Assembly: GCA_938743325.2 (NCBI GenBank)
Contig: OW568868.1
Coordinates: 744,001-808,000 of the forward strand
Reading direction: 5' to 3'
DNA: 64,000 nt
Source: Pycnococcus provasolii
Lineage: Eukaryota > Chlorophyta > Pseudoscourfieldiophyceae > Pseudoscourfieldiales > Pycnococcaceae
In this document: positions 34,666 to 64,000 of the stretch, piece by piece
Layout of the letters: every line of letters starts with the position of its first letter
How positions within the stretch are numbered: the stretch's first letter is position 1
Made by a program: the position numbers and the translations under genes
The notes under the pieces: generated by a model
What the model was told of the DNA's origin: nothing
The model's input: only the letters and a program-made list of their open reading frames with translations
Database searches by the model: none

Positions 34666-35301
34666 CCTTGCAAGTGGTTTGTTTCTTCCATCCGCGTGTT
34701 TCTTCGAGCTTCATTTCCGCTGGCCTCGGGAGTCCCGGGACTACTGTATTTTAGATTCCCCCAAACAAACCAAACACTGTACACACGGCACAAATGGGCA
34801 CGTCCCCTTCATCACTGTACTGTAAGCTCCGCCCGCGGGGGAGGGGAAAACAACCACTGTGGAAAAACCATAACCGTGTGGAGAGCTCACAGTTTGAAGC
34901 GGAGAAGCAAGCGCGTGTCCAGTCTAGACTTGGAAGCTTGGAGTCTAGACTCCAGTCTAGACGCGTACTTACCCAGCCGCCCAGGGTAAGTATCCCCTAT
35001 GTACTGAACTGTCGTTGGGCACCACCAACAACAACGGAACAACGGAACAACTGAACAACACCACCCCGTATCACCGTATGTATCCCATCCAAACACGGGT
35101 ATTCGGCCATACCCGTACAGCACATGAAAGGTGACCGGTGTTTCTTCCATCTACCTCTGCTTTAGCTGCATCGATCTCCCTGATAGAACACCTGGTCGGC
35201 CTTAAGGGACCTCTGCCTTCTCGTTAGGTGGTCACTTCGAAGAAGGTCCTGGATTATTACGGACTCGCTCTCCGGTGGCCGGCGTTGGTGCACCAGGAAG
35301 C
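34666..35301. promoter_or_regulatory. Upstream region of the ammonium transporter-cyclase gene with clustered palindromes
   Basis: Three closely spaced copies of the palindrome AGTCTAGACT (34921-34962; the second extends to GAGTCTAGACTC, the third is one base short) lie about 340 bp upstream of the ATG. Other sequence is unremarkable apart from an ACAACAACGGAACAAC-like tandem near 35025. A regulatory role is a guess. Confidence 0.35.
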
Positions 35302-38300: not shown

Positions 38301-38304
38301 TTGA
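35302..38304 (+). CDS. Ammonium transporter fused to two class III nucleotide cyclase domains
   Basis: 1000 residues from ATG 35302 (or 35275). Residues ~1-370 are an Amt/Rh-type channel with about 11 membrane segments: F-M-Q-A-G-F-M-L-L-E-A-G-S, A-G-G-T-T-V-H-V (first pore His, with the preceding Asp), W-F-G-F-N-G-S and V-G-V-H-A-V-A-G-A-W-G (second pore His). Two cyclase homology domains follow. CHD1 (~393-600) has both metal-ion aspartates (V-E-T-D-I-A-N-S-S and E-G-D-A-F) but lacks the Asn/Arg transition-state pair. CHD2 (~635-925) keeps Y-F-G-D-M-V-N-T-S-A-R but its metal site is altered (H-R-E-R-F in place of G-D-x-F). Together they could form one active site, as in C1/C2 adenylyl cyclases. 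Probable ammonium sensor producing cAMP or cGMP; the nucleotide is not deducible. Confidence 0.88.
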   Translation: MANGKYHGEVFYRLACASTVIFMQAGFMLLEAGSARIKHSRSVLVKNIAGACLSFISWATVGAFIGNEHGNIDDPGFVSLAIGAGFCATASTIVSGAIAERTRIEAYLVFSMFFSALVYPICLRLVDWAGSWNLHMHDCSFHDAAGGTTVHVAGGVAAGVFAKLVGPRLGRFGTQATNVHGHNAAYVALGTFILMYSWFGFNGSAAVLSLHENNANAMETAESIFLSTLFAAAAGPIGSELYLLSRKRRLVLDPGDLCNGLLAGLAAITAGCDVIPVHTSILVGASGAALATAVNYTLKNNRIVDDVVGAVGVHAVAGAWGTLCVGFCGKEATPKQFLIQLLVTLLIGAYSAFTTGAFYLAFDRAGMHFRASAKDEVNGLDGRFEGTATEIKPPEGVVTIVETDIANSSSLWSGHPMEMSAAQEIHDMIMRECMAQHRGYEVATEGDAFCIAFGNTIDAASFCLDVQRKMSAAKWPNALETAIAAQQHTDENKINGLLIRMAIDTSWCQRTMHNTFGTFHYRGKAIKTTAQMLECMPDGGMTLMTHRVHRKVFSMTTAMDSAFIIHLGRYDLHAKTSSKRKSVGLFALLPREHAKRLHAASRIVVGERKDSGFIHAPGVDMQAIASVEGFGGRIEKKVAMVFVTIIDRTKAHHPAIDRVGSYENLSDIDNAASPTLDNRFETPDNSVRGASLYTSMVTSSFRRISKLSQVWPTSVSPTSPPSGGGSSNDLTALDDEDLTSTTATHRESVNYVGSIMRETLKEFNGYFCQEHRERFMFAFENPRDAILWAMACSDAVDIRSKSLTIQPTSLAIGIHYSTPRQIRPHDTSGRADYFGDMVNTSARVASRAADKVSSCGGSVVMLTKLSLLAADLDSAGSWWQNSVKCTSCGVTKLKGIKELHELYVLERYSANGTFISEDESGVEFSRVEKALREAMDKIARSNDAGFEDSDSDVSELENVVSHTSPYASARSSRSKVNLATGLSLARLRNEMRTISSDDMV

Positions 38305-49177: not shown

Positions 49178-51043
49178 TTACCACAGCGTGGGAAACTTCG
49201 TCGCGTTCAAGTCTGGCACTGCCCAGTCGCAGGCGTCCTCGATGCCTAGATTGTCCACGCCGCGAATCACCCTGGCCCATCCATCTTCGCCCCAGTATTC
49301 GCCCCAGCTGTTGCGCAAAAGCCAGTACTTCGTGCCGTCCTGCGTGACACCCCATCCGGCAACACTAATCTCGTGGTCGATTTCTTTGCATCCAGTCGTG
49401 TCGTTAAACACACCTCCGCTGTACACTTCGAACTCTAGCGTCACGCACACGCCACAGCCAATCGGTCCACGCGCGAAAATCTCAGCCATCATATTCGCCT
49501 CCCCCTTGACTTGCCCGTGCTCGGAAATGTGGTAGCGCTCAAACTTGCCCTCGGGCACCGCGGCGCATCCCTTCATTGGGCGGCAGTTGCGGCACGTCCA
49601 CTCGGGCGTGCAAGAAAGATCTTTGGCCTGGTAGTTGGAGCACGAGTTGTCAACGATTCCGTTCTTGTAAACCCACTCGTAGGCAGCCGTGGGATCGCCG
49701 CCCTCGCAACCGTGGCTATCCGATCCCGTCACGCAGTCCACGAGCACCTGGCTGGAGAGTTCCACCTCAGGGAAGCGTCCGCCGCGCGCCAAGTTGAAAC
49801 GATCGGAGAGCGCGGATAACGTGCCCTGTGTCCAACAGCTCCCACAGTACTGAGGGATGTGTTGATTCCGGTCAAGCGACGCGTACGACAAGCCTCCGAT
49901 GTTGCGAATGTCGTACGAGTCTGGGATGTCCGACTCTTTCACGTACGTGTGCGGCAGAGGGCTCTTAACGACGGACGCCTTCTCACTCGAGTGGCGCACA
50001 CAAGGCTTGCTCTTGTCGTGGAACTTCAGAGGAGCCGCCTTGACTGCCTTCGACGCTTGCGCCACCGCCTGAACGCGCTGCGGCTCCGACGGGATGGCCC
50101 ACGAGCAGCCATTCTCGATGCCAAGGTTGTCGCTGTGCATCTTAATTTTGAAGTAGCCACCTTCTCCCCAGTAAGTGCCCCACGAGTTTCTACCGATCCA
50201 GTACTCCTCACCCGTCGTATCGTCCACGCTGAAACCGACGATAGCCAAAATGTGGTTGGGTACCGGAAGGAGCACGCGCTGCTGAAAGATTCCGCCGCTG
50301 TAGTTCTCAAACTCGTCCGTGACGTGAATGCCGCACGCCACCGGCCCGTGCGCGAACACTTCAGCCTTGATCTTATCCGCCTTCGACAGTCGGTTGCCCG
50401 CGGCGTCAATGTCCTTACCACCGTGCACGTGGCCATACTGCGAAAGCGTGACGCGGCTGTAGTTGGTGACGGGCGTGCATCCTTGTCCAGGACTGCAGTT
50501 CTCGCACACGCCGTACGGCTGGCACTTTCCATCAATCGCCTCGTAGTTCTGGCACGACTCGCTCGGCAAGCCCTTCTCGGCTATGTACTCGTACACTCCG
50601 TACGGGTCGCCTCCCTCGCACGAGCCTCCGCCGCCGCAGTTGACGAGCACTTGAGGTGCAAGGTTGAACTGCTGTCCCACCTTCTTGTTCGCGATGTTAA
50701 GGCGGTCAGAGAGGGAGGACGTCGTGCCAAAAGCCCAGCAGCTGCCGCAGTACTGTGGGATGTGCTGGTTACGGAGCTCGGAGAGGTAGTTGACTCCGTT
50801 GACGTCGCCCCAGAACCATTTCTTGGGCACGTCGTTCATCGAAAGTCGTTCGTGAGCTCGCGGGCCTGTGACTCGCTCGCCGTTCTTGAATTCGGTGTTT
50901 CCGTTGTAGCACGCCTTCTGGAACGGCTTGGCTTTGGCTTGAATGCGCGCGTCGACCATAGCTCTTCCACCATAGGAGGCGGCCGAGACGGCCACCAGCA
51001 GGGATGCCACCACGAGGGAGAGGAGGAGCATCACCGCCATCAT
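49178..51043 (-). CDS. Tandem-domain cathepsin Z/X-like cysteine protease
   Basis: 621 residues from ATG 51043 (or 51040), beginning with a signal peptide (M-L-L-L-S-L-V-V-A-S-L-L-V-A-V-S-A). Two complete C1A peptidase domains follow. Each has H-I-P-Q-Y-C-G-S-C-W with the catalytic Cys preceded by the cathepsin Z-type P-Q-Y-C, a C-E-G-G-D-P turn, a catalytic His (N-H-I-L-A-I-V-G-F; D-H-E-I-S-V-A-G-W) and an N-S-W-G motif (R-N-S-W-G in both). Both domains keep all catalytic residues. Domain 1 (~1-305) has C-W-A-F-G and domain 2 (~310-621) C-W-T-Q-G after the nucleophile. Cathepsin Z is a lysosomal/vacuolar carboxypeptidase; an internally duplicated form is uncommon. Substrates unknown. Confidence 0.9.
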   Translation of the reverse strand: MMAVMLLLSLVVASLLVAVSAASYGGRAMVDARIQAKAKPFQKACYNGNTEFKNGERVTGPRAHERLSMNDVPKKWFWGDVNGVNYLSELRNQHIPQYCGSCWAFGTTSSLSDRLNIANKKVGQQFNLAPQVLVNCGGGGSCEGGDPYGVYEYIAEKGLPSESCQNYEAIDGKCQPYGVCENCSPGQGCTPVTNYSRVTLSQYGHVHGGKDIDAAGNRLSKADKIKAEVFAHGPVACGIHVTDEFENYSGGIFQQRVLLPVPNHILAIVGFSVDDTTGEEYWIGRNSWGTYWGEGGYFKIKMHSDNLGIENGCSWAIPSEPQRVQAVAQASKAVKAAPLKFHDKSKPCVRHSSEKASVVKSPLPHTYVKESDIPDSYDIRNIGGLSYASLDRNQHIPQYCGSCWTQGTLSALSDRFNLARGGRFPEVELSSQVLVDCVTGSDSHGCEGGDPTAAYEWVYKNGIVDNSCSNYQAKDLSCTPEWTCRNCRPMKGCAAVPEGKFERYHISEHGQVKGEANMMAEIFARGPIGCGVCVTLEFEVYSGGVFNDTTGCKEIDHEISVAGWGVTQDGTKYWLLRNSWGEYWGEDGWARVIRGVDNLGIEDACDWAVPDLNATKFPTLW

Positions 51044-51980
51044 CACTTCTTGCAAGGTGTTGCCAACAAACAAGGCTGCAAGGGGGTGGGTTGGTTGGTG
51101 CACCGTGTGACCCAAGAAGAATCAGGTGACTGTAACGCGTCTTTTGACTCTTATTTTTGGCTTGCGGATGGTGATTCCGTCGGAATCATCCACCTGATGC
51201 GAGGCGCTCCGTCCGGATGTACTCTTCACTCGTGGCAGAGTGGCAGAGTGCAAGGCCGAGTGCTTTCTTTCCCCCTTTTCTCTCGGCTTATTCATCGTTC
51301 CCCGGGGGAACGTCCCCCAGGGGAACGTCCCCCCGGGGTTCCCTAGGTATCCCCGATATCGTCCTCCTTGCATCAAACAACAAAACCCGAGTTGCGTCGA
51401 AGAAAAGCGTTTCCCGACCCAAGATCAAACTCTGGATAGGCCGATAGGGCTATTACCGGGTCGAGGCCACAGGTCGAGGCGAGCGGAGGCGTGTGTGATG
51501 AAGGCCACAAAGTACAAACCGCACATGATGAGGGCCACAAAAGCCACGGGAAGTGCACTCTCCAAAAGAAACCAAAAGCAGCCACTCCAAGTCGACCACG
51601 TCACTTGTCACTGCCTTGTCACTCTCCTCTCCTCTCGTCTCGTCTCGGCCTCCACCTGGGTGGGTGACATGCGTGACCTCTCGGTCTCCTCTCCTCTCCA
51701 CCAGGTACTTCCTAACCTTAAGGCTTGGTGGTTCCTTGCAGGCCACTCCCTTGCACCTCCCTCGCCACCTCCACCTCAGAACTTGCCACACGTTCTTTCC
51801 TCTTGCTTTCCCATCACTCATCACTCATCACTCATCACTCATCACTCATCACTTTTGCCTTGTGCAAGTCGCCACCACAACTAACCTTCACCTCCGTGCC
51901 ACACTTACCACCTACGTGCCACTTACCTGTTGCCTCGGCACTTCGCAACTCGTTGAAGAGTCCTCTTTGCAGCCACCACC
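51044..51980. promoter_or_regulatory. Shared upstream region of cathepsin Z and mysC-mysD
   Basis: 937 bp between divergent starts. Six copies of the 7-bp unit CATCACT (51812-51853) lie 130-170 bp before the mysC-mysD ATG. A G/C-rich patch at 51300-51340 repeats GGGGAACGTCCCC. The region just before the ATG is TC-rich (CTCTCCTCTCCTCTCG). No gene seen. Confidence 0.5.
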
Positions 51981-54593
51981 ATGTTCTCTCTGACTGAGTG
52001 CGCACCAACGTCAGCAGCCATGGCTGCTGTCACAACAATGGGACTGATCACGCTCGTTGTGGGAACGAACCGCAAGTTCCTCGTGCAGACAGCCGCGAAT
52101 GTTCTCCCGCTGAACTTCCTCGTGCAGCTCACGTTCCTAGCGCACAAGCACCTCTTGCCGAAAGCAGCATCCTCAAGCACGCACTCCGACCCAACGATGA
52201 AAAACAAAACTGTTCTGGTGACAACGGGCCGCCAGGCGAAAACTCTGCACGTTGTTCGCGCGCTCAAGCAGGTCGGCGCGCGCGTCGTCGTCACGGATAC
52301 CCAGAAAACCTCAAGCAGCGGTGTCAGCAGCTCATGCGACGCGTTTCACGTCGTTCCTTCGTTGGACAACGCCACGGATTTAGACGCCCTCGTGGAAAAG
52401 TTTGCAGAGCTTTTGGAAAAAGAAAGTGTTGACGTCGTCGTTCCCATGTGCTCGATCAACTCTGCATTGTTCTACGCCGCCGCCAAGGACAAACTCGCCG
52501 AGCGATTCCCGCACGTAAGTTGGATCTGCGACAGTTTAAACAAAACTCTGCTGCTCGACAACAAGTTCGCGTTTGCCGACGTCTGCCTTGAATGGGGCGT
52601 GCCCACACCCGAGAGCGGACGCGTCATGAACAAGGAAGACACTTACAGAATTCCCACCTCAAAAATGGACGTCATCATCAAGCGCGTCGAAAGCTCGATG
52701 AATCGCAGCGAGGAGATTCTTGAAGTCCAAAAAGGACAAGATGCCACTAAACTGGAAGCAGTCAACACAGCCACCAGCGACGATCCGTGGCAGTGGCAGC
52801 GCCTCGTGCGCGGCGAAGAATTTTCTGCGTGGTACCTCGCGGTGAACGGACGCATCACGTTCTCCGCGCAGTACAAGAGCGCGCCGGACCTCATGCACTT
52901 CGAGGGCATGCCCGTGCCTGACGACGTCGACGCGTGCCTCACGCGCCTCATCGAGGGCATGAACCTCAATGGCCAGTTCGCATTCGACTACATCCGCGAG
53001 CACGATACCAACAAGTTCTACGTGTTCGAGTGCAATCCGCGAGGCAGCTCCGTTCTCGAGGTTGTGTCCGGCACGCCGGGGTGGGGCAAGGCGTTCTTCG
53101 GCACGGACATGCGCAAGCACGCACAGTTCCAGAAGTGCGGGTTCTTCATGCACGCGAACTGCTGGCCCGTTGGCGGATCGCGATTCAGCGAGTTCAAGGA
53201 TGCCTTCTTCAAGCCGAACGATCCGTTGCCGCTGCTCGTTGGCGAGGTGCTTTACCCGCTCGAGCTGATTCGGAAGAAGGGCCAAAAAGGCTACCATCAT
53301 GTGGATGCGAACATCGGCAAGATCATCGTGCCAGGCAAAAGTCCGGGACGCAACTTCAAGCTCTTCGAGAATGCGGCGAGTGACGTCGCCACCATCACAA
53401 CCTCTGAGTCGTCCCCAGTGCCAGTGGCGGAAGCACCAGCCCCCGCGGCGGCATCGTCGGACGACGAGGATGCCACCACGACAACGCCGACGAGAAAGAC
53501 GCGAGTGCTCCACGTCTTTGGATCCACGTCGAGCGAGTACTACTATGGCGTCTCGCGGTACTACGTGAAGAGTGCGTGGGAGAACCTCGTGGTGAAAGCG
53601 CCCAAGGCGGATCGCAGCAAGTACGACCACGTTCTCATGCAGGGACACCCGAACGGAATGTGGAGTTTGCCGGCAACTCCGAGCGACGACGACCTTCTCG
53701 ACGCGACGCAGCTTCCGCTGAGCGACGTGCTGAATCGCATCTCCTCGCTTCGCATTGACGTCGTCGTGCCGCACATGTACTGCTATCAGGGAATGACGAC
53801 GTGTCGCGGTTTATTCAAACTGCTGCGCCTTCCGCTGCTGGGCAACGGGCCCGACGCCATGGCACTGTCGACGAACAAGTGGCACACGCGTGCCATCATG
53901 GCTTCTGCCGGCGTTCCAGTTGCGGAGGGTCAGCTGCTCCGCCGCGGTGATGTTCCGCGCCTGTCTCCGCCATTTATCCTCAAGCCGAATCGTGAGGACA
54001 ACTCGCAGGGCATAACGCTGTTCAAGGGTGGCGGCGACGAGGCGCTACAGAAAGCACTCGATCACGCGTTTCAGTTCGACAATGAGGTGATCTGCGAGGC
54101 TTTCGTTCCGCTAGGTCACGAGATTCGCGTGACGGTGCTTGAGGACGATAACGGCAAACCATTCGCACTTCCCGCATGCGAGTATGTGATGGAACGCGAC
54201 GGTGCGGGCGTTCGCACCGCGGCGGACAAGCTTCAGACTGACGACCGCGGCGTGCCAACGGTACCCACGAAGTGTCGTCGTGACTTGCCCGCGGTGAACA
54301 TTCCAGAAAATGTGCTTGAGCGATGCCGCGAGGAAGCATTCAAGGCACACCGTGCGCTCTGCTGCCGAGACTATTCGATCTACGACATTCGCATTGCGCC
54401 GGATGGCACGCCGTACTTCCTGGAGGCTTCGCTGTATTGTTCCTTTGCCGAGACGAGTATTATAGTGCTGATGGACAATGCCCGCGGCAAGGGCAGTCGC
54501 GATTTGTTTGACAAGCTCGTTCGTCGATGCCGCAAGGAGCACGAGGAGAAGATTCGTGCTACGGGTGGGCAGCAGCTTCTGGGCATGCTCTGA
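51981..54593 (+). CDS. mysC-mysD: MysC-MysD fusion: two ATP-grasp ligases of mycosporine-like amino acid synthesis
   Basis: 870 residues. Residues ~15-60 are hydrophobic and basic, like the N-terminal membrane segment of MysC. Residues ~73-445 resemble MysC, which ligates glycine to 4-deoxygadusol: V-L-V-T-T-G-R-Q-A-K-T, V-D-V-V-V-P-M-C-S, D-N-K-F-A-F (~193), Y-V-F-E-C-N-P-R-G (~346) and V-D-A-N-I-G-K-I-I-V. After an acidic/Pro/Thr linker (~455-500), residues ~505-870 resemble MysD, the D-Ala-D-Ala-ligase-like enzyme that adds a second amino acid: V-L-H-V-F-G-S-T, P-P-F-I-L-K-P-N, V-I-C-E-A-F-V-P-L-G and F-L-E-A-S-L-Y-C-S-F. No active-site break is seen. In cyanobacteria these are separate genes; in red algae a fused form is known. 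It converges with mysA. Confidence 0.93.
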   Translation: MFSLTECAPTSAAMAAVTTMGLITLVVGTNRKFLVQTAANVLPLNFLVQLTFLAHKHLLPKAASSSTHSDPTMKNKTVLVTTGRQAKTLHVVRALKQVGARVVVTDTQKTSSSGVSSSCDAFHVVPSLDNATDLDALVEKFAELLEKESVDVVVPMCSINSALFYAAAKDKLAERFPHVSWICDSLNKTLLLDNKFAFADVCLEWGVPTPESGRVMNKEDTYRIPTSKMDVIIKRVESSMNRSEEILEVQKGQDATKLEAVNTATSDDPWQWQRLVRGEEFSAWYLAVNGRITFSAQYKSAPDLMHFEGMPVPDDVDACLTRLIEGMNLNGQFAFDYIREHDTNKFYVFECNPRGSSVLEVVSGTPGWGKAFFGTDMRKHAQFQKCGFFMHANCWPVGGSRFSEFKDAFFKPNDPLPLLVGEVLYPLELIRKKGQKGYHHVDANIGKIIVPGKSPGRNFKLFENAASDVATITTSESSPVPVAEAPAPAAASSDDEDATTTTPTRKTRVLHVFGSTSSEYYYGVSRYYVKSAWENLVVKAPKADRSKYDHVLMQGHPNGMWSLPATPSDDDLLDATQLPLSDVLNRISSLRIDVVVPHMYCYQGMTTCRGLFKLLRLPLLGNGPDAMALSTNKWHTRAIMASAGVPVAEGQLLRRGDVPRLSPPFILKPNREDNSQGITLFKGGGDEALQKALDHAFQFDNEVICEAFVPLGHEIRVTVLEDDNGKPFALPACEYVMERDGAGVRTAADKLQTDDRGVPTVPTKCRRDLPAVNIPENVLERCREEAFKAHRALCCRDYSIYDIRIAPDGTPYFLEASLYCSFAETSIIVLMDNARGKGSRDLFDKLVRRCRKEHEEKIRATGGQQLLGML

Positions 54594-54895
54594 TCTGATG
54601 AGAGAAGAACTATTCATTTGGGAAATCACACACGGCAGAAAACCATTAGAGTTATCCTAACTTTGTAATCATGAACGAACACAATTCTTTTTTAATTTGG
54701 AGAATAAAGTCGATTACATGTTGTCTTTCGTTTGTTTTTTCGTAAATATATAGTTGAAGAATGAATGAATGAATGAATGAATTTTGCACATTTCTCAATA
54801 CTAACAAATGTTTACCCGAAGATCGTGATGGTGAATGAAGTCAAGTCAACCTTGAGCTGTTGCACATGTGTGTGTCTCTTGAGCGAGCGAGCTAC
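54594..54895. other. Convergent 3' region of mysC-mysD and mysA
   Basis: 302 bp, A/T-richer than the genes, with five GAAT units near 54760-54780. A GAATAAAG-like polyadenylation motif lies near 54701. No gene. Confidence 0.5.
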
Positions 54896-56470
54896 TTAGT
54901 TGCGCAGGTGTTCGGGCAGCTTGCGCACGCGCGCTGCCTGAACATCGCGGCGCTGAGATGATTGCACGGGCTCACCCGGCCAGTTGTACCCCTCGAGTGT
55001 TGCACTTGCGTCGCCGTAGAGCGACGCGTGCTCGATCCGCGCGCTCTCGACAGCCTTTACCACCTCGTCCACCTGGATGTCGGAGAAGAAGCTCGCCTCC
55101 CCGATGCCCGTCATGAGCGGGATGCGCTGATAGCCGCTCCTCAGGCTCGCAGCGTCACGCAGAGCGTACGCAACGACGTCGCGGTTGAGCGACGGGTGCC
55201 AGAGCGGGAGCTCAAGAGCCTTGAGGATGCTTATGGTTCGGCGTCGTTCGTCCGGCGTGATGAGGCCGCGCATCGCCGACAGCTCTGTTGTCACCGCCAT
55301 GTCGATCGCAACCGCCTCACCGTGGAGCAGCGGTGCGTTGGACTCCAGCGCCGCCATCTCCAGAGGCGGCGAGAGCGTGTGCCCGTAGTCGACGAGTCGA
55401 ATGAGGATGTGCTCGTGCAGGTTCGGCTCGAGTTCCTCGAGCATGCCTTGAATCGAGCGTCGGATCGTGTTGGAAGCCACCTTCTCGAGGTGCGGCGCGG
55501 CGTCTCTGCTGGGGCAGAAGTGTGCTTGCACGAGCGCGTCGGCGTGATCTTCGAGGAGCTCGAAGAGCACGTCGTCCTTCACGCAAGCCATCTTAACGAT
55601 TTCCGCGGCGCCGTTTCGGATGTTGCGTGTGTCGAGGCTGCTCATCAGCGACCGATCAATCAGCGTGGCAAGCGGTGGGCTGTACGTGCCAAGCTTGTTC
55701 TTGTGTCCGTTGAAGTTGACGCCCGTCTTGACGCCAATGGATGCATCGACGACGCCCATGAGCGTCGTGGGGCACTTGATGACGGGCGTTCCTCGTCGGT
55801 ACAGGTTGACGGCGAGACCGACGATGTCGAGGCAGACTCCGCCACCAATGGCGATGACGGGGTGTCGTCTCCTGTCGACGCCGAACTTGCGCATTCTCTC
55901 CGCCACCTCGAAGACGAGCGCCATTTCCTTGTTCTCCTCGCGCGTGGGTAGTGTTAAGACTTCGTACTCGACATCGTGGTGCTTCATGTACGCGTGCAGG
56001 TCGTCGCCGTGGTGCTGATAGACGTTCTCGTCTATCACGATGAGGCGTCGCAGTGGTATGCGCAGGTCCTTGCCGCACCCGCACCGCAGCGGGTAGGAAT
56101 CAGGCACGACGCCTACTAAGAGATCGGTTGATGCCTTGTTGAATAAGCTTGAGGGCACCTCCTTGACGGCGTACTGGATAGGTATGCTCGCAGAAACTGT
56201 GAAGTGTCCACTCGAGAGGCCGTCCGTGCCGCCTTGCGTGAGCCCGTTGAGTCCCGTGCGATTCGGCCCATTTTCTTCGTTGTTGGCGATTTGTTTTTTC
56301 AGATTCGCCTCAGGCGCGTCGATCGCCGCGACAGAGTCGTTGATGTTCTCTTCTTTTTGAATAGTGGTTGCTGAGGAGACTTTGGCGGGTTGCGCGAGAC
56401 ACCACGTCGTCGTGCGTCTCGTCCTCGGCGCGCTGATGCGCCTAGGTTTTATAGTGGTCGTTGTGAACAT
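54896..56470 (-). CDS. mysA: MysA-type sugar phosphate cyclase (DDGS/EEVS family)
   Basis: 524 residues from ATG 56470; the start is Thr/Arg/Ser-rich and resembles a transit peptide. The dehydroquinate-synthase-fold core begins near residue 110. Key blocks are I-A-I-G-G-G-V-C-L-D-I-V-G and P-T-T-L-M-G-V-V-D-A-S-I-G-V-K-T-G-V-N (NAD and substrate), G-A-A-E-I-V-K-M-A-C-V-K, R-L-V-D-Y-G-H-T-L-S-P and L-L-H-G-E-A-V-A-I-D (Zn and active site). It would cyclise sedoheptulose 7-phosphate. DDGS, giving the 4-deoxygadusol precursor, is preferred over EEVS because MysB-, MysC- and MysD-like domains are adjacent; key discriminating residues could not be aligned safely. The gene is separate, whereas red algae fuse MysA to MysB. 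Confidence 0.85.
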   Translation of the reverse strand: MFTTTTIKPRRISAPRTRRTTTWCLAQPAKVSSATTIQKEENINDSVAAIDAPEANLKKQIANNEENGPNRTGLNGLTQGGTDGLSSGHFTVSASIPIQYAVKEVPSSLFNKASTDLLVGVVPDSYPLRCGCGKDLRIPLRRLIVIDENVYQHHGDDLHAYMKHHDVEYEVLTLPTREENKEMALVFEVAERMRKFGVDRRRHPVIAIGGGVCLDIVGLAVNLYRRGTPVIKCPTTLMGVVDASIGVKTGVNFNGHKNKLGTYSPPLATLIDRSLMSSLDTRNIRNGAAEIVKMACVKDDVLFELLEDHADALVQAHFCPSRDAAPHLEKVASNTIRRSIQGMLEELEPNLHEHILIRLVDYGHTLSPPLEMAALESNAPLLHGEAVAIDMAVTTELSAMRGLITPDERRRTISILKALELPLWHPSLNRDVVAYALRDAASLRSGYQRIPLMTGIGEASFFSDIQVDEVVKAVESARIEHASLYGDASATLEGYNWPGEPVQSSQRRDVQAARVRKLPEHLRN

Positions 56471-57913
56471 CGCAGAGTCAAATGACGCAGAAGTGAGAAT
56501 CAGTGAAGTGTGCAAGCTAGCTATGTGTAAGGTGTGCGTGTGCAAAGGCCAGGCGTGTGCAAGCTGCGTGCGAGCAAGGCGTGTGCAAGTTGTTGATGGA
56601 GAGTCTTGCAAGCGCGGCCGGAGACGTGCACGCGAGTGGTTGCCTGCCTTAATGTGTGCCGTGCGCGCGCCTTTGTGCGTGTGCAAGGTGCGTGCGCGTG
56701 TACGAGCGTGTGCAAGGTGCGTGCGCGGCCGGAGACGTTATTGATGTGAACTGCTTGCAATCAATGACGTGTGCGCCGGAAGTGGGACGTATGCGCCGGA
56801 AGTGGGACACGGAGGTGTGTGCTGGAACTCACGTGAATACGTGTATTGACGTACACTGGGAACGAAGTTGGGTTTGTGGCCCACAAGGTGCCCGAGAAGG
56901 CGAAGGCGAAGGCGAAGGAGGAGTGGGCACTGGGCAGTGAGGAGGAGCACTTGTCACATACCTCTGAGGTGGTACGATAAAAGCCGTTTTCGAAGCCTCG
57001 TCGACCGAACAAAGGCGATTCTCCGTCTATCCTTCGGTTCGCTTTCGAGTGGTACAGTACATAGTCTACAGTACTGCGTTCTACGCGTCTCTCTCCGTGG
57101 CTGGGAGAAGAGGACCTTTTTGCGTGTTTTGTGAAAAAAGAAACGGCCCTTCGCTTCAGCCACGCATTCCTCCGCTCACGGCGCTTTTTGGTGGCTGTCT
57201 GCTGAGATTCCCTCGTCGTCTGCAAGCTTCGAGTGACGTCACTCGCTTCCAGGGGTAAGTGCACTTCCTTTTGGCTTCTTTTTGGATGCTTTTTTGCACC
57301 TTTTTGTTTGTTCTGGAAGATTTCTGGTCCAAAAAACTCCACGTTGGTGGTGCCCAAAACTTGGGCACCACCAGTGTGGGTCACCCTATCCACACTCCAC
57401 GGGTTTATTTTTCCACTTTTATTGGAATGTTCTTTTTCTCCTCTCTTCTTTGTCTCTTTTTTGCTCACTTTTGCCTTTTCCAGCAAGACCGATGGGAGAG
57501 CTTGCAAGTCTTGACCACCTCGCCGAGCCGAGAAATCGAATGAGGAGGCCTGGAGGCAGTTGGGCACCTCCGTCCGGGACCGGGACCGGGACCCCCAGGC
57601 AAATAAATCTCCGCCTCAAATCTCCAAAACAGGTTTCCAGCCACACCCGAAGGCCCCCCCCCCCCCCCCCCAAGGGGCCTGGCCGCGCGTTCGAAGTTCG
57701 TCTTGCACGCCAGCCAGCCATCACTCACTCACTCACTTCACTCAACTCACATCCACGCAATACGTGCGCACGCGCACACTTACACTTGTAGCAGACAGAA
57801 CCTCTTCTGCCTCTGCGCCTCTCGTTTCTTTGCTTGTCTCAGCTCAGCTTGCAGTCGGCCTCTCAGCATTCTATTCTCGTCACATCAGCTCCTTAACTAT
57901 CACCACCACAATC
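56471..57913. promoter_or_regulatory. Divergent regulatory region between mysA and mysB-SDR
   Basis: 1443 bp between the two ATGs. It includes a GTGTGCAAG-rich segment (56520-56740), a palindrome at 57339-57379, and a candidate 5'-UTR intron 57255-57483 (donor GTAAGT, pyrimidine-rich tract, acceptor TTCCAG). Eighteen consecutive C residues lie at 57654-57671. The stretch from 57485 on would be leader exon. Joint control of both genes is inferred. Confidence 0.5.
57339..57379. repeat. Long near-perfect palindrome in the mysB-SDR leader
   Basis: GGTGGTGCCCAA (57346-57357), spacer AAC, TTGGGCACCACC (57361-57372); adding one base per side and CCAC/GTGG after a 2-bp mismatch extends it to 57339-57379. 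It falls inside the candidate 5'-UTR intron. Confidence 0.85.
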
Positions 57914-59692
57914 ATGTGCAAGGGCGACACCACCACCTCGGCAGCAGTTGCTCACGGTTTCTCCGTGGAGTCCTTCTTGAGCAAGAGTCCTCCGGGTGTT
58001 CCAGACACTCCCATGGAGGAGGTGGCTGAAAGCCTTCGCGCAGCCTTGTCTTCAGACGACATATCAGTGATGAAGTCGCACATCAGCGAGGCTTTGCGTG
58101 TCGTCGCCGGCCTGGACCCGTACATGGCTGCCATGAGCACTCCTCCAAGTAAGGCTGTGTCCGATCTAGTCCAGAAAAGCGAACAGCACGACTGGGACGG
58201 CGCCTATGCGAATAAAAAAACCCAATTTAAACTCAAAAGGGAAATGTGCGCCGGCTCGCTCGAAGGCGCGTTCGTGCGCATGCTCGCCGCAGTCACGCAC
58301 GCGCGCGATGTGCTTGAAATTGGAATGTTCACCGCCACAACCACGCTCGCGATCGCCGAAGTCATGCCGCCGGACGGACACATCACCGCGCTCGAAATGG
58401 AGCCGTACTTAGTCGAGACCTTCGCGAAACCCGCGTTCGCCAGCGTGGGACGCGAGCACATGCTCGACGTCAAGCTAGGACCCGCCATGGAAGGACTCAA
58501 AGCGCTCGCGAACGAACACGCGCAGTTTGACTTGATCTTCATTGATGCAGACAAGCCGGGATACGAGTCCTATCTAGACACCATCCTCGAAAGCAACATG
58601 CTCGCGCCGCAGGGAATGGTCGTCGCCGACAACACGCTCTTCAAGTCCAAGACGTACCCGCTCGAGGCGAACTACGGAGGCATGGACGAAAACACGCGTG
58701 CGATGCACACCTTCAACCGACGCGTGCTGAACGATCCCACGCTCGAGGTGGTCATGCTGCCCCTGCGCGACGGTGTCAGCCTGATTCGACGAAAGGCGCC
58801 GAGCGAACTTCCCTCCAATCTGCAGCTGACAGGCGCGCACGTCGACACGACGGACGACGTCTTTCGAGGAGTTCCGCGCACACCAGAAGCGCAGGCCATT
58901 CAAACGACGCCTGTGCCATGCCTGCTCGATCGCCTGCGCCTGCGCGGGCAGGTCGCCATGGTCACGGGCGGTGGTCAGGGCATTGGACGGGCGTTTGCGC
59001 ACGCACTTGCCGAGGCTGGTGCGCGCGTTTCCGTCGTGGACATCGATCAATCTAAGGCGAACGCCGTCGCCAGCGAGCTTGTCGCCAAAGGCGCCAAGGC
59101 AATCGCGCTTGCCGCAGATGTCAGCAGCGAGAAAGACTGCCACCGCATGGTGGACGAGACGGTTGCGCAGCTCGGAGGATTGAACATCGCATGCAACAAC
59201 GCGGGCATCAACCGCAACAGCGCGGCGGAAGAGACGACCATGAAGGACTGGGACGACACGTTCAACATCAACACGCGCGGCGTCTTCATGGGATGCCAGG
59301 CGCAGGCCAAGTACATGTTCGCGAACGGTGGAGGACGCATCGTCAATACCGCGTCGATGGCTACACTGCTCGTGCCGCATCCACAGAAGCAGGCTGCGTA
59401 CAACTGCTCGAAGGCGGCTGTGGTGAAGATGACCGAGACGCTCGCTTGCGAGTGGGCTGACCGCAACGTGCAGGTGAACTGCATATCTCCCGGCATCGTG
59501 AATACAGCACTCATTCGCGAGAGCCCCGCTCTCGCGCCTCTCGTCAATCAGTGGCTGGACCAAATCCCGATGGGTCGACTTGCCGAGGTGGCTGATCTGC
59601 AGCTCGCATTTTTGCTTTTATGCAGCCAGCACGCCAATCCTTACATGACTGGTCACAACCTCGTTGTGGAGGGGGCGCAGAGCCTGTGGTAA
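57914..59692 (+). CDS. mysB-SDR: MysB-type O-methyltransferase fused to NAD-type short-chain dehydrogenase
   Basis: 592 residues from ATG 57914. Residues ~35-290 match MysB, the methyltransferase giving 4-deoxygadusol: A-G-L-D-P-Y, L-E-I-G-M-F-T-A (SAM motif I, ~133), D-L-I-F-I-D-A-D-K (~208) and P-L-R-D-G-V-S-L-I-R-R. After a ~50-residue linker, residues ~340-592 are a classical SDR: T-G-G-G-Q-G-I-G, V-V-D-I-D after strand 2 (Asp favouring NAD over NADP), N-N-A-G, a T-A-S serine and Y-N-C-S-K. Both halves keep catalytic residues and the frame is unbroken. The SDR step in this pathway is unknown: it could oxidise or reduce the cyclitol or its amino substituent. Fish gadusol enzymes pair methyltransferase and oxidoreductase similarly, but homology is not shown here. 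Confidence 0.93.
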   Translation: MCKGDTTTSAAVAHGFSVESFLSKSPPGVPDTPMEEVAESLRAALSSDDISVMKSHISEALRVVAGLDPYMAAMSTPPSKAVSDLVQKSEQHDWDGAYANKKTQFKLKREMCAGSLEGAFVRMLAAVTHARDVLEIGMFTATTTLAIAEVMPPDGHITALEMEPYLVETFAKPAFASVGREHMLDVKLGPAMEGLKALANEHAQFDLIFIDADKPGYESYLDTILESNMLAPQGMVVADNTLFKSKTYPLEANYGGMDENTRAMHTFNRRVLNDPTLEVVMLPLRDGVSLIRRKAPSELPSNLQLTGAHVDTTDDVFRGVPRTPEAQAIQTTPVPCLLDRLRLRGQVAMVTGGGQGIGRAFAHALAEAGARVSVVDIDQSKANAVASELVAKGAKAIALAADVSSEKDCHRMVDETVAQLGGLNIACNNAGINRNSAAEETTMKDWDDTFNINTRGVFMGCQAQAKYMFANGGGRIVNTASMATLLVPHPQKQAAYNCSKAAVVKMTETLACEWADRNVQVNCISPGIVNTALIRESPALAPLVNQWLDQIPMGRLAEVADLQLAFLLLCSQHANPYMTGHNLVVEGAQSLW

Positions 59693-59793
59693 TTTCGTGG
59701 GTCGGAATCAGAAAACAATCTCATTCATCCATTCCTTAAATTCTTTATTAAGCAACGACACAATAATTATATTACATAAGGTAGGTTAGTCTA

Positions 59794-61443
59794 CTACACA
59801 TCGCCCTCTTCGGCGTCGTCAGCAGTCATAGTGATGTTCGAGTACCTTGTTGTTGACGGTTTTGACGCCACCTTGATGCGCGCCATGTGCGGATGGAGGC
59901 ATGAGGCAATGAATGTGGTCAGGAACCAGAACATCATGAACGTGACCGCCATGAGCAGAAGTGGCTTGGATCTGGAGCCAGTTTTGGAGACCGCAACTCG
60001 CGTCCATGGAGAGAGCATGACACCAAGCTTTCCAATCGCCGACGCAATGCCGAACGAGCTCGAGCGTACATCTGGCGCAAACAGGAGCGGGGCTGACGCG
60101 TAGATGACTGGCCAAGCGATATCGTAGAAAAACGTCCAAATCACATACGTGCAGAGCAGTGAGCCGAGACTGTGAAATGCGAAAGCGGCAGCCATGGCGG
60201 CAACAGATGCGCCACAAGCGCCGCACGCGGCTGTCAACAGCCGTGCATATCCAAAGCGAGGAACGAACGCGTAGGCGGTTGCAACGAACGCGACGATGCC
60301 CACTATGTTAGCCACCAGCAGCGAACCAAAGTTCTGCGCTCGCGACGCGCCAGCTGCTTTCGCAAGTTCAGGAAGCCACTGGTAAAGCCCGCTCGCGAGA
60401 TTTGCAAAGAGCCAGAGCGCACACGTAAGCACTAAGACGCGATCGAAAGGCGGCAACATGCGATATGCAGTCGCCTGAGTAGTCTTTGACGACTCGCTGC
60501 TGTTGTCGCCTCCACGTCGAAGAGCTGCCGCCTGCGGCGGCGTTGCCTTGCCGTTCCACCTCGCGACTGCGGCGAGTGCCAGAGAGGCTTCTTGCGTGCG
60601 TCCCACCGCGACTAGAAATGCCGCGCTCTCTTCGGCAAGAAAGACCAGCGGCAGGAGAGAGAGCACGGCGGGCATGCCGGCGAATAGAAACACGTACCTC
60701 CATCCGAACTGACTCAGCACCCACCCCATGGCGACCTCCATGACGACGCCCGTCTTGAACCACACCTGCATCAACACTAAACACTCGTCGCGCTGCGCGG
60801 TGGGCAACCACTCAGTCAGCAGCGAGAACGCGACGGGAATCGATCCACCGACGGCGGCGCCTAGACCGAGCTGGCAGAAGAGCAGGCTGGTCAATGAGCG
60901 TGACGCGAACCCAATAACAGCCATGACGATGCCCACGGCCTGGCACGCCGCGAGCGTCCATCTCCGCCCGAACCGGTCGGAAGCGATTCCAAATAACGCC
61001 GCGCCCAGGGCGGCCCCGACGCCTGCTAAGGACAATAACGCCGCCTCTCCCAAGGCGTTGATCTTAAAGGATTCGTGGAGCTGCGGCAGGCACAGCGGCA
61101 TCATGAGCATGAGCGCGCCGTCCGCGCACCAGCAGAGTCCGCATACGGTAAAGTTGAAGAGCTGGTACCGGCCCCATCCCACTTGGTCGATTGCGCCTTG
61201 TACGAGAGCGACGACCGGTGACTCAGAGCTTGAGCTTGAACACGTTTGTAAGTTCGCCGAATTCTCAGGGACAGCCGCTGAGAGATGAGCAGGTGCGGTG
61301 CCCACAAGGAGAGCAGCGCTATCGTCAACGTCATCGTCGGCGGCCAAGTCGTCAGCGTGTGTCACAGTGGTTGTGCTGCGGCGCACCGTCACACCGGCCG
61401 TTGCGCCCGTGTTGCCGAGATTCGTCGCGCCGCTGACGGACAT
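59794..61443 (-). CDS. MFS transporter of the SV2/SVOP or organic-ion type, candidate MAA transporter
   Basis: 549 residues. After a polar N-terminus of ~65 residues, G-W-G-R-Y-Q-L-F-N-F begins helix 1. Loop 2 carries G-I-A-S-D-R-F-G-R-R, the MFS signature, and helix 4/5 has G-L-G-A-A-V-G-G-S-I-P-V. Twelve helices in two halves are apparent, with a Ser/Thr/Lys-rich loop near residue 320. SV2/SVOP-like proteins move organic solutes. It converges with mysB-SDR (101 bp between stops), so a role in export or vacuolar storage of mycosporines is inferred from neighbourhood only. Confidence 0.75.
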   Translation of the reverse strand: MSVSGATNLGNTGATAGVTVRRSTTTVTHADDLAADDDVDDSAALLVGTAPAHLSAAVPENSANLQTCSSSSSESPVVALVQGAIDQVGWGRYQLFNFTVCGLCWCADGALMLMMPLCLPQLHESFKINALGEAALLSLAGVGAALGAALFGIASDRFGRRWTLAACQAVGIVMAVIGFASRSLTSLLFCQLGLGAAVGGSIPVAFSLLTEWLPTAQRDECLVLMQVWFKTGVVMEVAMGWVLSQFGWRYVFLFAGMPAVLSLLPLVFLAEESAAFLVAVGRTQEASLALAAVARWNGKATPPQAAALRRGGDNSSESSKTTQATAYRMLPPFDRVLVLTCALWLFANLASGLYQWLPELAKAAGASRAQNFGSLLVANIVGIVAFVATAYAFVPRFGYARLLTAACGACGASVAAMAAAFAFHSLGSLLCTYVIWTFFYDIAWPVIYASAPLLFAPDVRSSSFGIASAIGKLGVMLSPWTRVAVSKTGSRSKPLLLMAVTFMMFWFLTTFIASCLHPHMARIKVASKPSTTRYSNITMTADDAEEGDV

Positions 61444-61690
61444 CTGCTTCGCTCGACAAGTTGGTGCCGGTGAACTTGTGGCCCTTGAAGAAGAAGGTGT
61501 CGGGAGCTGGCCAGTCTCCCCCTACCTGGGCCCAGGGGGTGGGGATCCCTCCTCGATCCTTTTCGCGTCCACCTTCGTTCGGGATCCCGGGAGAACGACG
61601 TTTCACGTCTGTTCGTGGTGTGTGTGAATGTGTGATGCGTGCAAACGAATGAATTACTGTAAATTGAATGAACTAACCTTAGACTACGAA
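61444..61690. other. Short intergenic region
   Basis: 247 bp upstream of the MFS gene and downstream of the NTF2-like gene. No motif recognised. Confidence 0.4.
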
Positions 61691-62827
61691 TTAATTGTTC
61701 GCAGGAGCAGGCTCCGCGGCAACGACGCGCCCTCTCTCTATTTGCTCAAGCACGGCAATTTCATCGTAAACAAAATAACCTTCCACGATTTGATTCGTCT
61801 CCGCGTGAACATTGAGGTGCATCTCGCCCAACACCACGACGCGCGATCCGCTCGCATCGCCGAAACGCGACGACGTACCCTCATGTTCACCAGCCATCGT
61901 CCAACGCACGGCAAGCCAGCTCCCGACCGCGGTGGGGCCATTGAGGCTGCACGCATTCGTTGCGAAGTCAATACGCCAGCGCGCGTTGGGAAACGCGGCG
62001 AACCAGCTTGCATAGTACTCCTCAAGATCTTCGTGGCCGACGAGCTCGCGTCCTGCTGGCGCTCTCACGAACGCGTGCTTGTGAAACAGGTTCGTGACAA
62101 GCTTAGAGGAGTCGGCCGTGCTGCCTGCATTCCACATTTCGTGCAGCTGAGCGCAAATGCGTGATGCACCACCGCCGCCGCCTTCATGCACGAGTCCGTC
62201 GATCGCAGTAGACACGCTGCTGTCGTCGACCACGCGCGCGTACTCAGCTGCAAGCCACTGAACGAGTCGTTTCTGTGCCGGCTTCTGAGCTCGTTGGCGC
62301 GCTAGATCGTGCGGGTCGCATCCCAGCTGGACGGCGAGCGTGTAATTATCTCGCACGAGCCACTCCTCGACGATAACTTCGTTGTCGATGACGCAGTGCG
62401 CGATGGTGAGTATGCGCGCGCGCCGTCCTGTGGGTGGCCCGTGCTCCGTTGCGCCTTTATGCGTGAGTCTGCTTGAGATGAGGTGGCTTGAGTGGTACTT
62501 GTTGGAGCTATCGCGTCCCCACACCAAACCCAGCGGAAACAAAGTTCGGTCCGGAAACGCTTCCAGAGTAATGTTAGTCGCTTCCGTCACTTCCTCCGCG
62601 CCTTTTGTGATGTGTGCGATCGTGTACACGGGACACTCCTTAGAGTAGTAGTTGTGGCATAACGAAGTTTGCTTTTCTTCCCAGATGGCGTACGTGATGG
62701 CGTCGATGTATCTGACTAAACTTCCGTTGAAGTTTGGGAATGACGCCGATTCTTCCTCTGGTGGTGAATGCTTGCTGCGCAGGTACCCGCAGCTGCTTAG
62801 TGGTAAGGGCTGTGGTGAAGTTGTCAT
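61691..62827 (-). CDS. Protein with two NTF2/SnoaL-like domains
   Basis: 378 residues. Domain 1 (~35-185) starts Y-I-D-A-I-T-Y-A-I-W-E-E-K, then H-N-Y-Y-S-K-E-C-P-V-Y-T, and has V-I-D-N-E-V-I-V-E-E-W-L-V-R-D-N. Domain 2 (~205-365) has H-E-M-W-N-A-G, V-T-N-L-F-H-K-H-A-F-V-R, G-H-E-D-L-E-E-Y-Y-A-S-W-F-A-A-F-P-N-A-R-W and I-V-E-G-Y-F-V-Y-D. These are the alpha-helix/beta-cone features of NTF2-like (SnoaL) domains, used by small-molecule cyclases, isomerases and lyases. The active residue cannot be named. It is on the same strand as the MFS gene and diverges from a second NTF2-like gene. A role on mycosporine intermediates is a hypothesis. Confidence 0.75.
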   Translation of the reverse strand: MTTSPQPLPLSSCGYLRSKHSPPEEESASFPNFNGSLVRYIDAITYAIWEEKQTSLCHNYYSKECPVYTIAHITKGAEEVTEATNITLEAFPDRTLFPLGLVWGRDSSNKYHSSHLISSRLTHKGATEHGPPTGRRARILTIAHCVIDNEVIVEEWLVRDNYTLAVQLGCDPHDLARQRAQKPAQKRLVQWLAAEYARVVDDSSVSTAIDGLVHEGGGGGASRICAQLHEMWNAGSTADSSKLVTNLFHKHAFVRAPAGRELVGHEDLEEYYASWFAAFPNARWRIDFATNACSLNGPTAVGSWLAVRWTMAGEHEGTSSRFGDASGSRVVVLGEMHLNVHAETNQIVEGYFVYDEIAVLEQIERGRVVAAEPAPANN

Positions 62828-63751
62828 ATTGGATACTGGCCGAGCGTGACGCGTGCGACTGGCCGAGCACGTTCAGGTAAGCTGCCTGGCAAGCACGTTG
62901 CCGTCAGTGGATGTGAATTGTGGGTTGTGACGCGCGGCCGAGCACACAGGTAAGCTGACAGTGAATTGTGACGTTTCTCGACTCGGTGGTGACGTGCGTC
63001 TCCTGTGCGTCTCCTCATTAAAAAAATAAGAAGGAGCTCAAGAACCGGTTCTAGAGTGCATCCCAATTTGCTGCGTGGTTTCCTTTGTTTCGTCCTTCGT
63101 CGTCGATCGTTGACGGAGATGCCACGTCGCGGGAACGAGATCTTTGCAATCTTTACCACTACCAAATACACCCATGGTGGGCCTCAATCTGTGCAATGTG
63201 CGATACCAACTATGAGACTTGCATCCCCTTGCACCTTGTGAGCTCACTTACCTTAAGGCTTAACTTACCGGGCTCTCCGGTCCACCTAAAGGTTTAAAGC
63301 CTAAAGCCTAAAGCCACAATGTTACAATGTATGTACCACGACTTGCAAGCTCCTAATAGGTACCACGGTAATAGGAAGTGGTAAAGTTTTTTATTGCATG
63401 CTCGTTAAACTCGTTCCAAGGCAAGCTGGCAAGGCGGTGCAATTTACTGTACCATCCTACCTTTTTTTAAGGGTAAACTTTACCGAGATGTGAAAAAATA
63501 TCTTCCCCACTGCCCGACCATTTCCGACGCACCTGGAAGATTTGCCTCGACCTTTTCAACCCAACCGCGTTTGGTTTGATGCTCCAAACATCCGTACACG
63601 TCACTCTTCCCTTGTTTTCTTGCCGCTTAAGTGTGTGCATCTCAACTTGTGCGCACTCACTCGCCCACTCACGACTGCCTTGGCACTCACTCTGGCACCT
63701 AAGCACCTGCCTGACTTGACTTGTGTTTGCACACTCTACCCTCCGCAAACA
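62828..63751. promoter_or_regulatory. Divergent region between two NTF2-like genes
   Basis: 924 bp. Contains an AAGCCTA tandem near 63295-63315. No gene with recognisable product. Confidence 0.4.
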
Positions 63752-64000
63752 ATGGCGACATCTATGGCGGCCAGCGCACCCGCGCCTGAAGCTGACGCTC
63801 TCGGCAAGGCCCCTCCTCCTGCTTCTTTGGAAGATGTGCGCTCCTTGCGCGATTCCCTATACGCTTCTTTGCAGTCCATGTGGCGTGCCTCCACAGATGA
63901 AGAGTCTCTCCAAATTGCAAAGAACTTTGTAGCCGAAGATGCTATTTTGGATATCTGCGCGCCCGTGGAACGACTCATAGGCGCACAGGCGTTCTTTCAA
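63752..64000 (+). CDS. NTF2/SnoaL-like protein, 5' part only
   Basis: The window ends after 83 codons from ATG 63752. The Ala/Pro-rich start is followed by L-R-D-S-L-Y-A-S-L-Q-S-M-W, F-V-A-E-D-A-I-L-D-I-C-A-P and G-A-Q-A-F-F, the beginning of an NTF2-like domain similar to those of the preceding gene. The rest lies outside the window. It is divergent from, and probably paralogous to, the two-domain protein. Confidence 0.65.
   Translation, partial: MATSMAASAPAPEADALGKAPPPASLEDVRSLRDSLYASLQSMWRASTDEESLQIAKNFVAEDAILDICAPVERLIGAQAFFQ

What the first reader, a model, noticed from the sequence alone, without database searches (positions are those of the whole stretch)
51981..64000. Candidate mycosporine-like amino acid gene cluster in an alga, with unusual fusions and extra genes
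MysC-MysD, MysA and MysB homologues lie within 8 kb in a eukaryotic genome, together with an SDR, an MFS transporter and two NTF2-like genes. Such clustering is typical of cyanobacteria; in eukaryotes it is known mainly from red algae. Seen: the four Mys-type domains with catalytic motifs, and their order and orientation (C-D forward, A reverse, B-SDR forward, MFS reverse, NTF2 reverse, NTF2 forward). Known: the MysA-D pathway. Inferred: that the neighbours tailor or transport the product.
Basis: partly seen in the sequence, partly recalled or inferred. Interest (0 to 1): 0.95.

Follow-up and report, generated by a model that had tools for sequence, protein, structure and literature searches.

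The report
Gadusol-type sunscreen gene cluster, marine alga
A tiny marine green alga carries, side by side, fish-type genes that should make the sunscreen gadusol and a fused enzyme that should attach two amino acids to it, a combination that we know otherwise only as a laboratory hybrid.

Summary
The cluster is real, but its chemistry is not the one named. The window lies in Pycnococcus provasolii CCAP190/2, a marine prasinophyte (two contig lengths equal published figures). The core is three genes in 7.7 kb: a MysC-MysD fusion, a sugar-phosphate cyclase, and an O-methyltransferase-SDR fusion. [quoted passage not shown] 'MysB plus an SDR' is one protein, a homologue of vertebrate gadusol MT-Ox along its length (50% over 569 positions). 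No DDGS was found in the genome. The predicted route is SH7P, EEV, gadusol, then two amino-acid additions: a gadusol-core, two-amino-acid MAA ('gadusporine'-like). A related hybrid (EEVS, MT-Ox, MysC-like, O-MT) is published for other green algae (PMC7826186); the fused MysD is the new element. MFS and SnoaL neighbours are only suggestive. Expression and chemistry were not testable, and the structure prediction never finished. New variant of a known kind.

The parts
51981..54593 (+). MysC-MysD fusion, 870 aa: N-terminal hydrophobic segment (residues 10-28), a MysC-type ATP-grasp half and a MysD/D-Ala-D-Ala-ligase-type half joined by a short linker
   Evidence: Named red-algal fused homologues (Gracilaria 44%, Agarophyton 42%, best local alignment over 45% of the query); P0002 74% over 99%. 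24% identity to Nostoc HK-01 MysC and 41% to its MysD.
52206..53336 (+). MysC-type half (residues 76-452); ECNPR motif at 350-354 conserved
53502..54509 (+). MysD-type half (residues 508-843); the two omega-loop specificity positions read Val and Leu by alignment
   Evidence: positions from PMC11983340
54896..56470 (-). [quoted passage not shown]
57914..59692 (+). Gadusol MT-Ox homologue: O-methyltransferase (residues ~26-295) fused to an SDR oxidoreductase (~342-592)
56471..57913 (.). 1443-bp shared upstream region between the divergent EEVS and MT-Ox genes (possible shared promoter, inferred)
   Evidence: spacing only
59794..61443 (-). MFS transporter (Sugar_tr / aromatic-acid symporter-like); possible exporter, inferred from position only
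   Evidence: no significant similarity to the MFS in the Nostoc HK-01 MAA cluster
61691..62827 (-). Protein with two SnoaL/NTF2-like stretches; role unknown
63542..64000 (+). Start of a second SnoaL/NTF2-like protein (first ATG 63752) that ends beyond the window at C8:808891

Best explanation
This is a nuclear gene cluster of the prasinophyte Pycnococcus provasolii for a mycosporine-like amino acid built on a gadusol core. EEVS cyclises sedoheptulose 7-phosphate to 2-epi-5-epi-valiolone. MT-Ox oxidises and O-methylates it to gadusol. The MysC half of the fused ligase activates gadusol with ATP and adds a first amino acid (glycine by analogy); the MysD half then adds a second, giving a gadusol-core, two-amino-acid MAA of the 'gadusporine' type. 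Shown: gene identities by homology, kept motifs, single copies, clustering, and no DDGS-type gene found in the genome search. Inferred: activity, acceptance of gadusol by MysC and MysD, the amino acids, plastid origin of the substrate, and any export by the neighbouring MFS.
For: Cyclase: ValA (EEVS) 333.7 bits against DDGS 217.4 bits; 45-47% to the best bacterial sedoheptulose 7-phosphate cyclases on plasmids against 39.5% to the DDGS of the Nostoc HK-01 MAA cluster; EEVS-like residue at 23 of 26 columns that separate 119 of its own database hits from two DDGS, DDGS residue at 2, and ValA, not one of those hits, also at 23; a starred clade of 32 rows with green algae and chytrids, DDGS apart. 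MT-Ox: 50% identity over 569 positions to a fish MT-Ox; 118 of the 120 listed hits, all but the two nearest kin, at 48-53% over 91-98%; SAM and SDR motifs kept. MysC-MysD: fused homologues in red algae and unnamed sources, single copy, ECNPR and LEAxLYCSFA kept. Two PF01761 matches in the genome. Zebrafish EEVS and MT-Ox make gadusol in vitro and in yeast (PMC4426668, passages). [quoted passage not shown]
Against: No expression, UV-induction or metabolite data. The EEVS-like set consists of the window protein's own hits, so that count is partly circular; only two DDGS served as contrast, and the published 14 fingerprint residues could not be read. The place of the window inside the EEVS clade is not resolved. 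The MT-Ox tree, unrooted and with a long-branch warning, puts it on the side of fish and one unnamed protein rather than with the green algae (90/96). MysC is only 24% identical to the one cyanobacterial MysC at hand, though two red-algal ones are equally far (26%). The MysD loop fits no characterised pattern. Orthology of this MysC with that of the published green-algal cluster was not tested. The species was among the first isolated from below the pycnocline, where a sunscreen seems less needed, though it is found at 0-100 m (PMC11130579). The structure job did not finish.
Confidence: 0.77

Rival explanations
1. Classical MysA-D pathway: the cyclase is a DDGS, the methyltransferase a MysB, the SDR a separate tailoring domain, the product a 4-deoxygadusol MAA such as shinorine.
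For: MysC and MysD homologues are present; the methyltransferase half is 37% identical to Nostoc MysB.
Against: The cyclase scores higher with EEVS and keeps the DDGS residue at 2 of 26 columns. The MT and SDR are one protein, collinear with MT-Ox. No DDGS-type gene was found elsewhere in the genome.
Confidence: 0.08
2. The pathway stops at gadusol or a one-amino-acid compound, as proposed for other green algae (klebsormidin- or prasiolin-like); the MysD half is inactive or does another ligation.
For: The klebsormidins are cyclohexenone gadusol-type compounds with one amino acid (PMC7118736, passages); the MysD omega loop is unlike the characterised ones.
Against: The MysD half keeps 41% identity to Nostoc MysD over 338 positions and its LEAxLYCSFA motif. 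No separate O-methyltransferase like that of the published green-algal cluster was recognised among the ORFs examined beside the core; the rest of the genome was not searched for it.
Confidence: 0.2
3. The MFS, SnoaL, aldehyde-dehydrogenase and 2-hydroxyacid-dehydrogenase neighbours belong to the pathway and modify or export the product (compatible with the best explanation).
For: 3 of 4 SnoaL matches in the genome are the two genes beside the cluster; the MFS stop lies 101 bp from the MT-Ox stop.
Against: Synteny in other species could not be tested; no significant similarity of the MFS to that of the Nostoc MAA cluster.
Confidence: 0.3

Closest known systems
Green-algal hybrid MAA neighbourhood (Klebsormidium nitens, Chromochloris zofingiensis, Coccomyxa subellipsoidea; PMC7826186, passages seen)
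   Same: EEVS of the same clade (Klebsormidium and Chromochloris rows), an MT-Ox homologue, an ATP-grasp MysC-like ligase, clustering, gadusol core proposed
   Different: There the fourth gene is an O-methyltransferase, and the one mention of mysD in the main text concerns the engineered gadusporines; here MysC is fused to MysD. Pycnococcus is not mentioned. Its MysC-like proteins could not be compared with this one.
Vertebrate gadusol pathway (zebrafish EEVS + MT-Ox; PMC4426668, passages seen)
   Same: First two enzymes and the domain order of MT-Ox
   Different: Vertebrates make gadusol; here an amino-acid ligase fusion follows. Fish EEVS was not among the sequences compared.
[quoted passage not shown] Brawley 2017, seen only as cited in PMC9298759)
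   Same: MysC-MysD fusion; homologues in Gracilaria and Agarophyton
   Different: The front half is EEVS and MT-Ox instead of DDGS/O-MT; the linker between C and D is much shorter; the Pycnococcus MysC and MysD form a deep separate lineage
Cyanobacterial MAA cluster (Nostoc sp. HK-01 plasmid, L020)
   Same: MysC and MysD homologues, and an MFS gene nearby
   Different: DDGS-type cyclase and stand-alone methyltransferase; unfused C and D; MFS without significant similarity
Engineered gadusporine pathway (Osborn and Mahmud 2019, known here only through PMC7826186)
   Same: The same four activities: EEVS, MT-Ox, MysC, MysD
   Different: That was a laboratory combination of vertebrate and bacterial genes; this is a natural cluster

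Membership tests
MysA / desmethyl-4-deoxygadusol synthase (DDGS) | Closest to DDGS in sequence and tree, DDGS residues at diagnostic sites | tested here: not met
   217 against 334 bits for EEVS; DDGS state at 2 of 26 columns; separate branch. Two DDGS sequences only.
[quoted passage not shown]
   23 of 26 columns; inside a starred clade of 32 rows with green algae and chytrids. The 119 EEVS-like proteins are hits of the window protein itself; ValA is the outside check.
[quoted passage not shown]
   Paper not held
[quoted passage not shown]
   Needs an enzyme assay
Gadusol MT-Ox | One protein with N-terminal O-methyltransferase and C-terminal SDR, collinear with the fish enzyme | tested here: met
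   50% identity over 569 positions to the Astyanax protein; 569 proteins found, best 120 listed; motifs
Gadusol MT-Ox | Converts EEV to gadusol | not testable with these tools
   Needs an enzyme assay
MysB | Stand-alone O-methyltransferase acting after DDGS | tested here: not met
   Fused to an SDR; 37% to Nostoc MysB against 50% to fish MT-Ox. The fish MT half is itself 48% to MysB.
MysC | ATP-grasp homologue of MysC with intact ligand motif | tested here: met
   BLAST E 7e-31 to Nostoc HK-01 MysC, 24% identity; ECNPR kept
MysD | D-Ala-D-Ala-ligase-like homologue of MysD | tested here: met
   41% identity, E 1e-73 to Nostoc HK-01 MysD
MysD | Known omega-loop pattern that predicts Ser or Thr | tested here: not met
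   Val/Leu at the two aligned positions (positions from PMC11983340)
Green-algal hybrid MAA cluster of PMC7826186 | EEVS, MT-Ox and MysC-like ligase clustered | tested here: met
   orthology of the ligases not tested
Green-algal hybrid MAA cluster of PMC7826186 | Fourth gene: separate O-methyltransferase | tested here: inconclusive
   None among the ORFs scanned with Pfam from 46.9 kb to C8:813.3 kb; smaller or spliced genes and the rest of the genome were not searched
Red-algal type MAA cluster | DDGS/O-MT fusion together with MysC-MysD fusion | tested here: not met
   MysC-MysD fusion present; no DDGS/O-MT fusion found

The most novel reading that the evidence does not exclude
Pycnococcus provasolii holds a natural gene set for gadusol-core, two-amino-acid (cyclohexenimine-type) MAAs. 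A fish-type gadusol front end and a red-algal-type MysC-MysD fusion stand together in one nuclear cluster, a combination so far known to me only as an engineered one, and it should make an undescribed sunscreen in a widely distributed picoalga.
Probability: 0.58. Interest if true: 0.75.

Novelty: new variant of a known kind. Interest (0 to 1): 0.62.

Why it matters
It names a testable natural source of gadusol-core MAAs with two amino acids, in a culturable alga (CCAP190/2). It extends the hybrid green-algal pathway to an early-branching chlorophyte lineage. It shows the gadusol front end next to a MysC-MysD fusion, which bears on how sunscreen genes were exchanged among green algae, red algae and animals. 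If the ligase accepts gadusol, it is a one-protein tool for making such sunscreens.

Tried and rejected
DDGS/MysA identity for the cyclase: rejected on bit scores, diagnostic columns and tree. MysB plus separate SDR: rejected. A second cyclase that could feed a 4-deoxygadusol route: none found beyond the gene on C15, read as DHQS. Prediction of the amino acid added by MysD from the omega loop: led nowhere. Kinship of the MFS to the Nostoc MAA-cluster MFS: no significant match. MysC or fusion relatives in prokaryote genomes and in viral contigs: no confirmed match; plasmids gave 12 records with MysC-like matches under 60% identity, so one cyanobacterial cluster served as reference. Rfam on the window: 0 matches at gathering score. 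Promoter/terminator scan of 56400-58000: bacterial consensus, not used. Structure prediction of the fusion was asked for and was not finished; no structural claim is made.

Rows left out of counts; the own protein P0158 was left out of the consensus (119 of 120 listed hits used, 2178 found); the tree used 48 rows out of 127 aligned; no row among the 120 listed bears a fish name, so fish EEVS was not compared; 26 of 120 listed MT-Ox hits plus the window. The MysC-MysD protein search considered only proteins of 0.55-1.75 times 870 aa, so stand-alone MysC and MysD of usual length could not appear.

Paper listings were capped: one search showed 40 of 301 papers, 20 of 64, 15 of 67, 25 of 247; some searches showed all of 7, 10, 5, 9 and 8.
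Full report
What the window is. The genome has 32,333,900 bases in 46 contigs and the window is C8:744001-808000. Contig C1 is 1,490,684 bp and C36 is 486,817 bp; these equal the longest scaffold and the N90 length given for the Pycnococcus provasolii CCAP190/2 assembly ucPycProv1.2 (PMC11130579, part 1 of 3 of the text read), whose span is 32.25 Mb. The genome has 51 matches to the light-harvesting family.

The observation. The genes lie as described. The start of the MT-SDR gene is most likely 57914 and that of the cyclase 56470; the database copies P0038 and P0158 begin there. MysC-MysD and the cyclase are convergent with 302 bp between stops; the cyclase and MT-Ox are divergent over 1443 bp; MT-Ox and MFS are convergent with 101 bp between. 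The fusion has one match in the genome and the MT-Ox one full-length match out of 26. With uniform placement the chance that two given loci fall this close to a third is about 2e-7, a figure computed after the fact.

The cyclase is EEVS-like. Against the Protein Data Bank the best match is ValA (4p53, 333.7 bits), then DDGS (5tpr, 217.4 bits), then DHQ synthases. Among plasmid records the best are bacterial sedoheptulose 7-phosphate cyclases at 45-47%, and the DDGS of Nostoc HK-01 follows at 39.5%. At 26 alignment columns at least 90% of 119 EEVS-like proteins (the window protein's own hits) share a residue that differs from both DDGS available; the window has that residue in 23, the DDGS residue in 2 and another in 1; ValA also has it in 23, and the distant cyclase of Streptomyces NBC_00467 in 14. 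The tree of 48 rows puts the window in a starred set of 32 rows with green algae, chytrids and three unnamed proteins, away from the DDGS pair; its place inside that set is not resolved. The listed database hits with green-algal names include Coccomyxa, Chromochloris (Cz11g05100, the query gene of PMC7826186), Ulva, Trebouxia, Klebsormidium and Cymbomonas, at 48-55% identity. The genome search found only one other DHQ-synthase-type match, on C15, read as the ordinary DHQS (28% identical to this one). So no DDGS was found that could make 4-deoxygadusol.

The methyltransferase-SDR is an MT-Ox homologue. Apart from its own species and one near relative (85%), the 120 listed hits match over 91-98% of the query at 48-53% identity; they are green-algal, fish, one chytrid and unnamed, and many fish rows bear the name zgc:113054, the zebrafish MT-Ox gene of PMC4426668. 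A direct comparison with the Astyanax protein gives 50% over 569 positions; with Nostoc MysB 37% over 275. The SAM-binding motif, the FIDADK stretch, the TGxGQGIG nucleotide motif and the SDR S and YxxxK residues are kept (motif roles recalled). In an unrooted tree of 27 rows the window and its kin stand on the side of fish and one unnamed protein (90/96), with a long-branch warning, not among the green algae; so its exact kinship is open. The zebrafish pair turns SH7P into gadusol (PMC4426668, passages).

The ligase fusion. Of 37 database proteins found, one is 99% and one 74% identical over 99% of the query; two others bear red-algal names, Gracilaria domingensis and Agarophyton chilense, and most are unnamed. 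The MysC half is 24% identical to MysC of the Nostoc HK-01 plasmid cluster, the two red-algal ones 26%. The MysD half is 41% identical to its MysD. Rooted on Nostoc, the trees set the Pycnococcus type (window, P0001, P0002) apart from the other eukaryote-type sequences in both halves, with support 81/84 and 91/85 for the rest, on long branches, so where the fusion came from is open. The linker is far shorter than in the red-algal proteins. A hydrophobic N-terminal stretch is shared with Nostoc MysC and, at a laxer threshold, with 7 of 10 relatives checked. At the two omega-loop positions that set Ser or Thr preference in cyanobacterial MysD (PMC11983340, passages) the window reads Val and Leu, so the second amino acid cannot be predicted (alignment-based).

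How it most likely works. SH7P, perhaps from the Calvin cycle given a possible plastid transit peptide on the cyclase (inferred from composition), is cyclised to EEV, then oxidised and methylated to gadusol, then joined to one and then a second amino acid by the fused ligase. Gene identity by homology is shown; activity and substrate acceptance are inferred. [quoted passage not shown] I did not see that original paper.

Against what is known. PMC7826186 already proposed a hybrid pathway with EEVS, MT-Ox, a MysC-like ligase and an O-methyltransferase, clustered in three named species and 'at least four' genomes, and a gadusol-core product. Klebsormidins A and B carry an N-methyl-serine unit (glycosylated in A) on a ring with the extra hydroxyl of gadusol and absorb at 324 nm (PMC7118736, passages). 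What is new here is the MysC-MysD fusion in such a cluster and its presence in Pycnococcus. I saw no paper describing it in the listings of searches, some of them capped, which cover open-access PubMed Central only; most subscription papers are not held.

Neighbours. The two SnoaL-like genes account for 3 of the 4 SnoaL matches in the genome. Beyond them lie an aldehyde dehydrogenase and a 2-hydroxyacid dehydrogenase. The MFS has no significant similarity to that of the Nostoc cluster. These may or may not belong. Upstream are a cysteine protease with two papain domains and a PgtP-like MFS, with no evident link.

Results against the reading. There are no expression or metabolite data; the species was first known from below the pycnocline; the MysD loop is unusual; the MT-Ox tree does not place the window among green algae; only two DDGS sequences and one cyanobacterial cluster served as references; the EEVS-like set is drawn from the window's own hits; and the structure prediction did not finish.

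Noticed in passing
window 35275-38301 (+): An ORF of 1009 aa joins an ammonium transporter (PF00909) to a guanylate/adenylate cyclase catalytic domain (PF00211): a possible ammonium-sensing cyclase.
   Followed up: no
C8:308352-310283 (L017:880-2811, - strand), outside the window: A RuBisCO-large-like protein fused to a Cupin_2 domain; the only PF00016 match found in the genome held.
   Followed up: partly
C31:133072-142609 and C31:360395-366434, outside the window: Twelve light-harvesting-protein matches with the same score in two groups of six on contig C31, in mixed orientations: possibly a recent amplification.
   Followed up: no
C2:246614 and C2:263158, outside the window: Two 18S rRNA 3'-end sites in opposite orientation about 16.5 kb apart; upstream of the first the 18S seems to hold an intron-like insertion (by eye).
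   Followed up: no
window 49178-51115 (-): A cysteine protease ORF with two papain-family stretches next to the cluster.
   Followed up: no
P0025-P0033 (database proteins): MysC-type proteins in which no MysD part was found; eight of the nine were in the MysC tree and sit among fused lineages, which would fit fission or independent fusion.
   Followed up: partly
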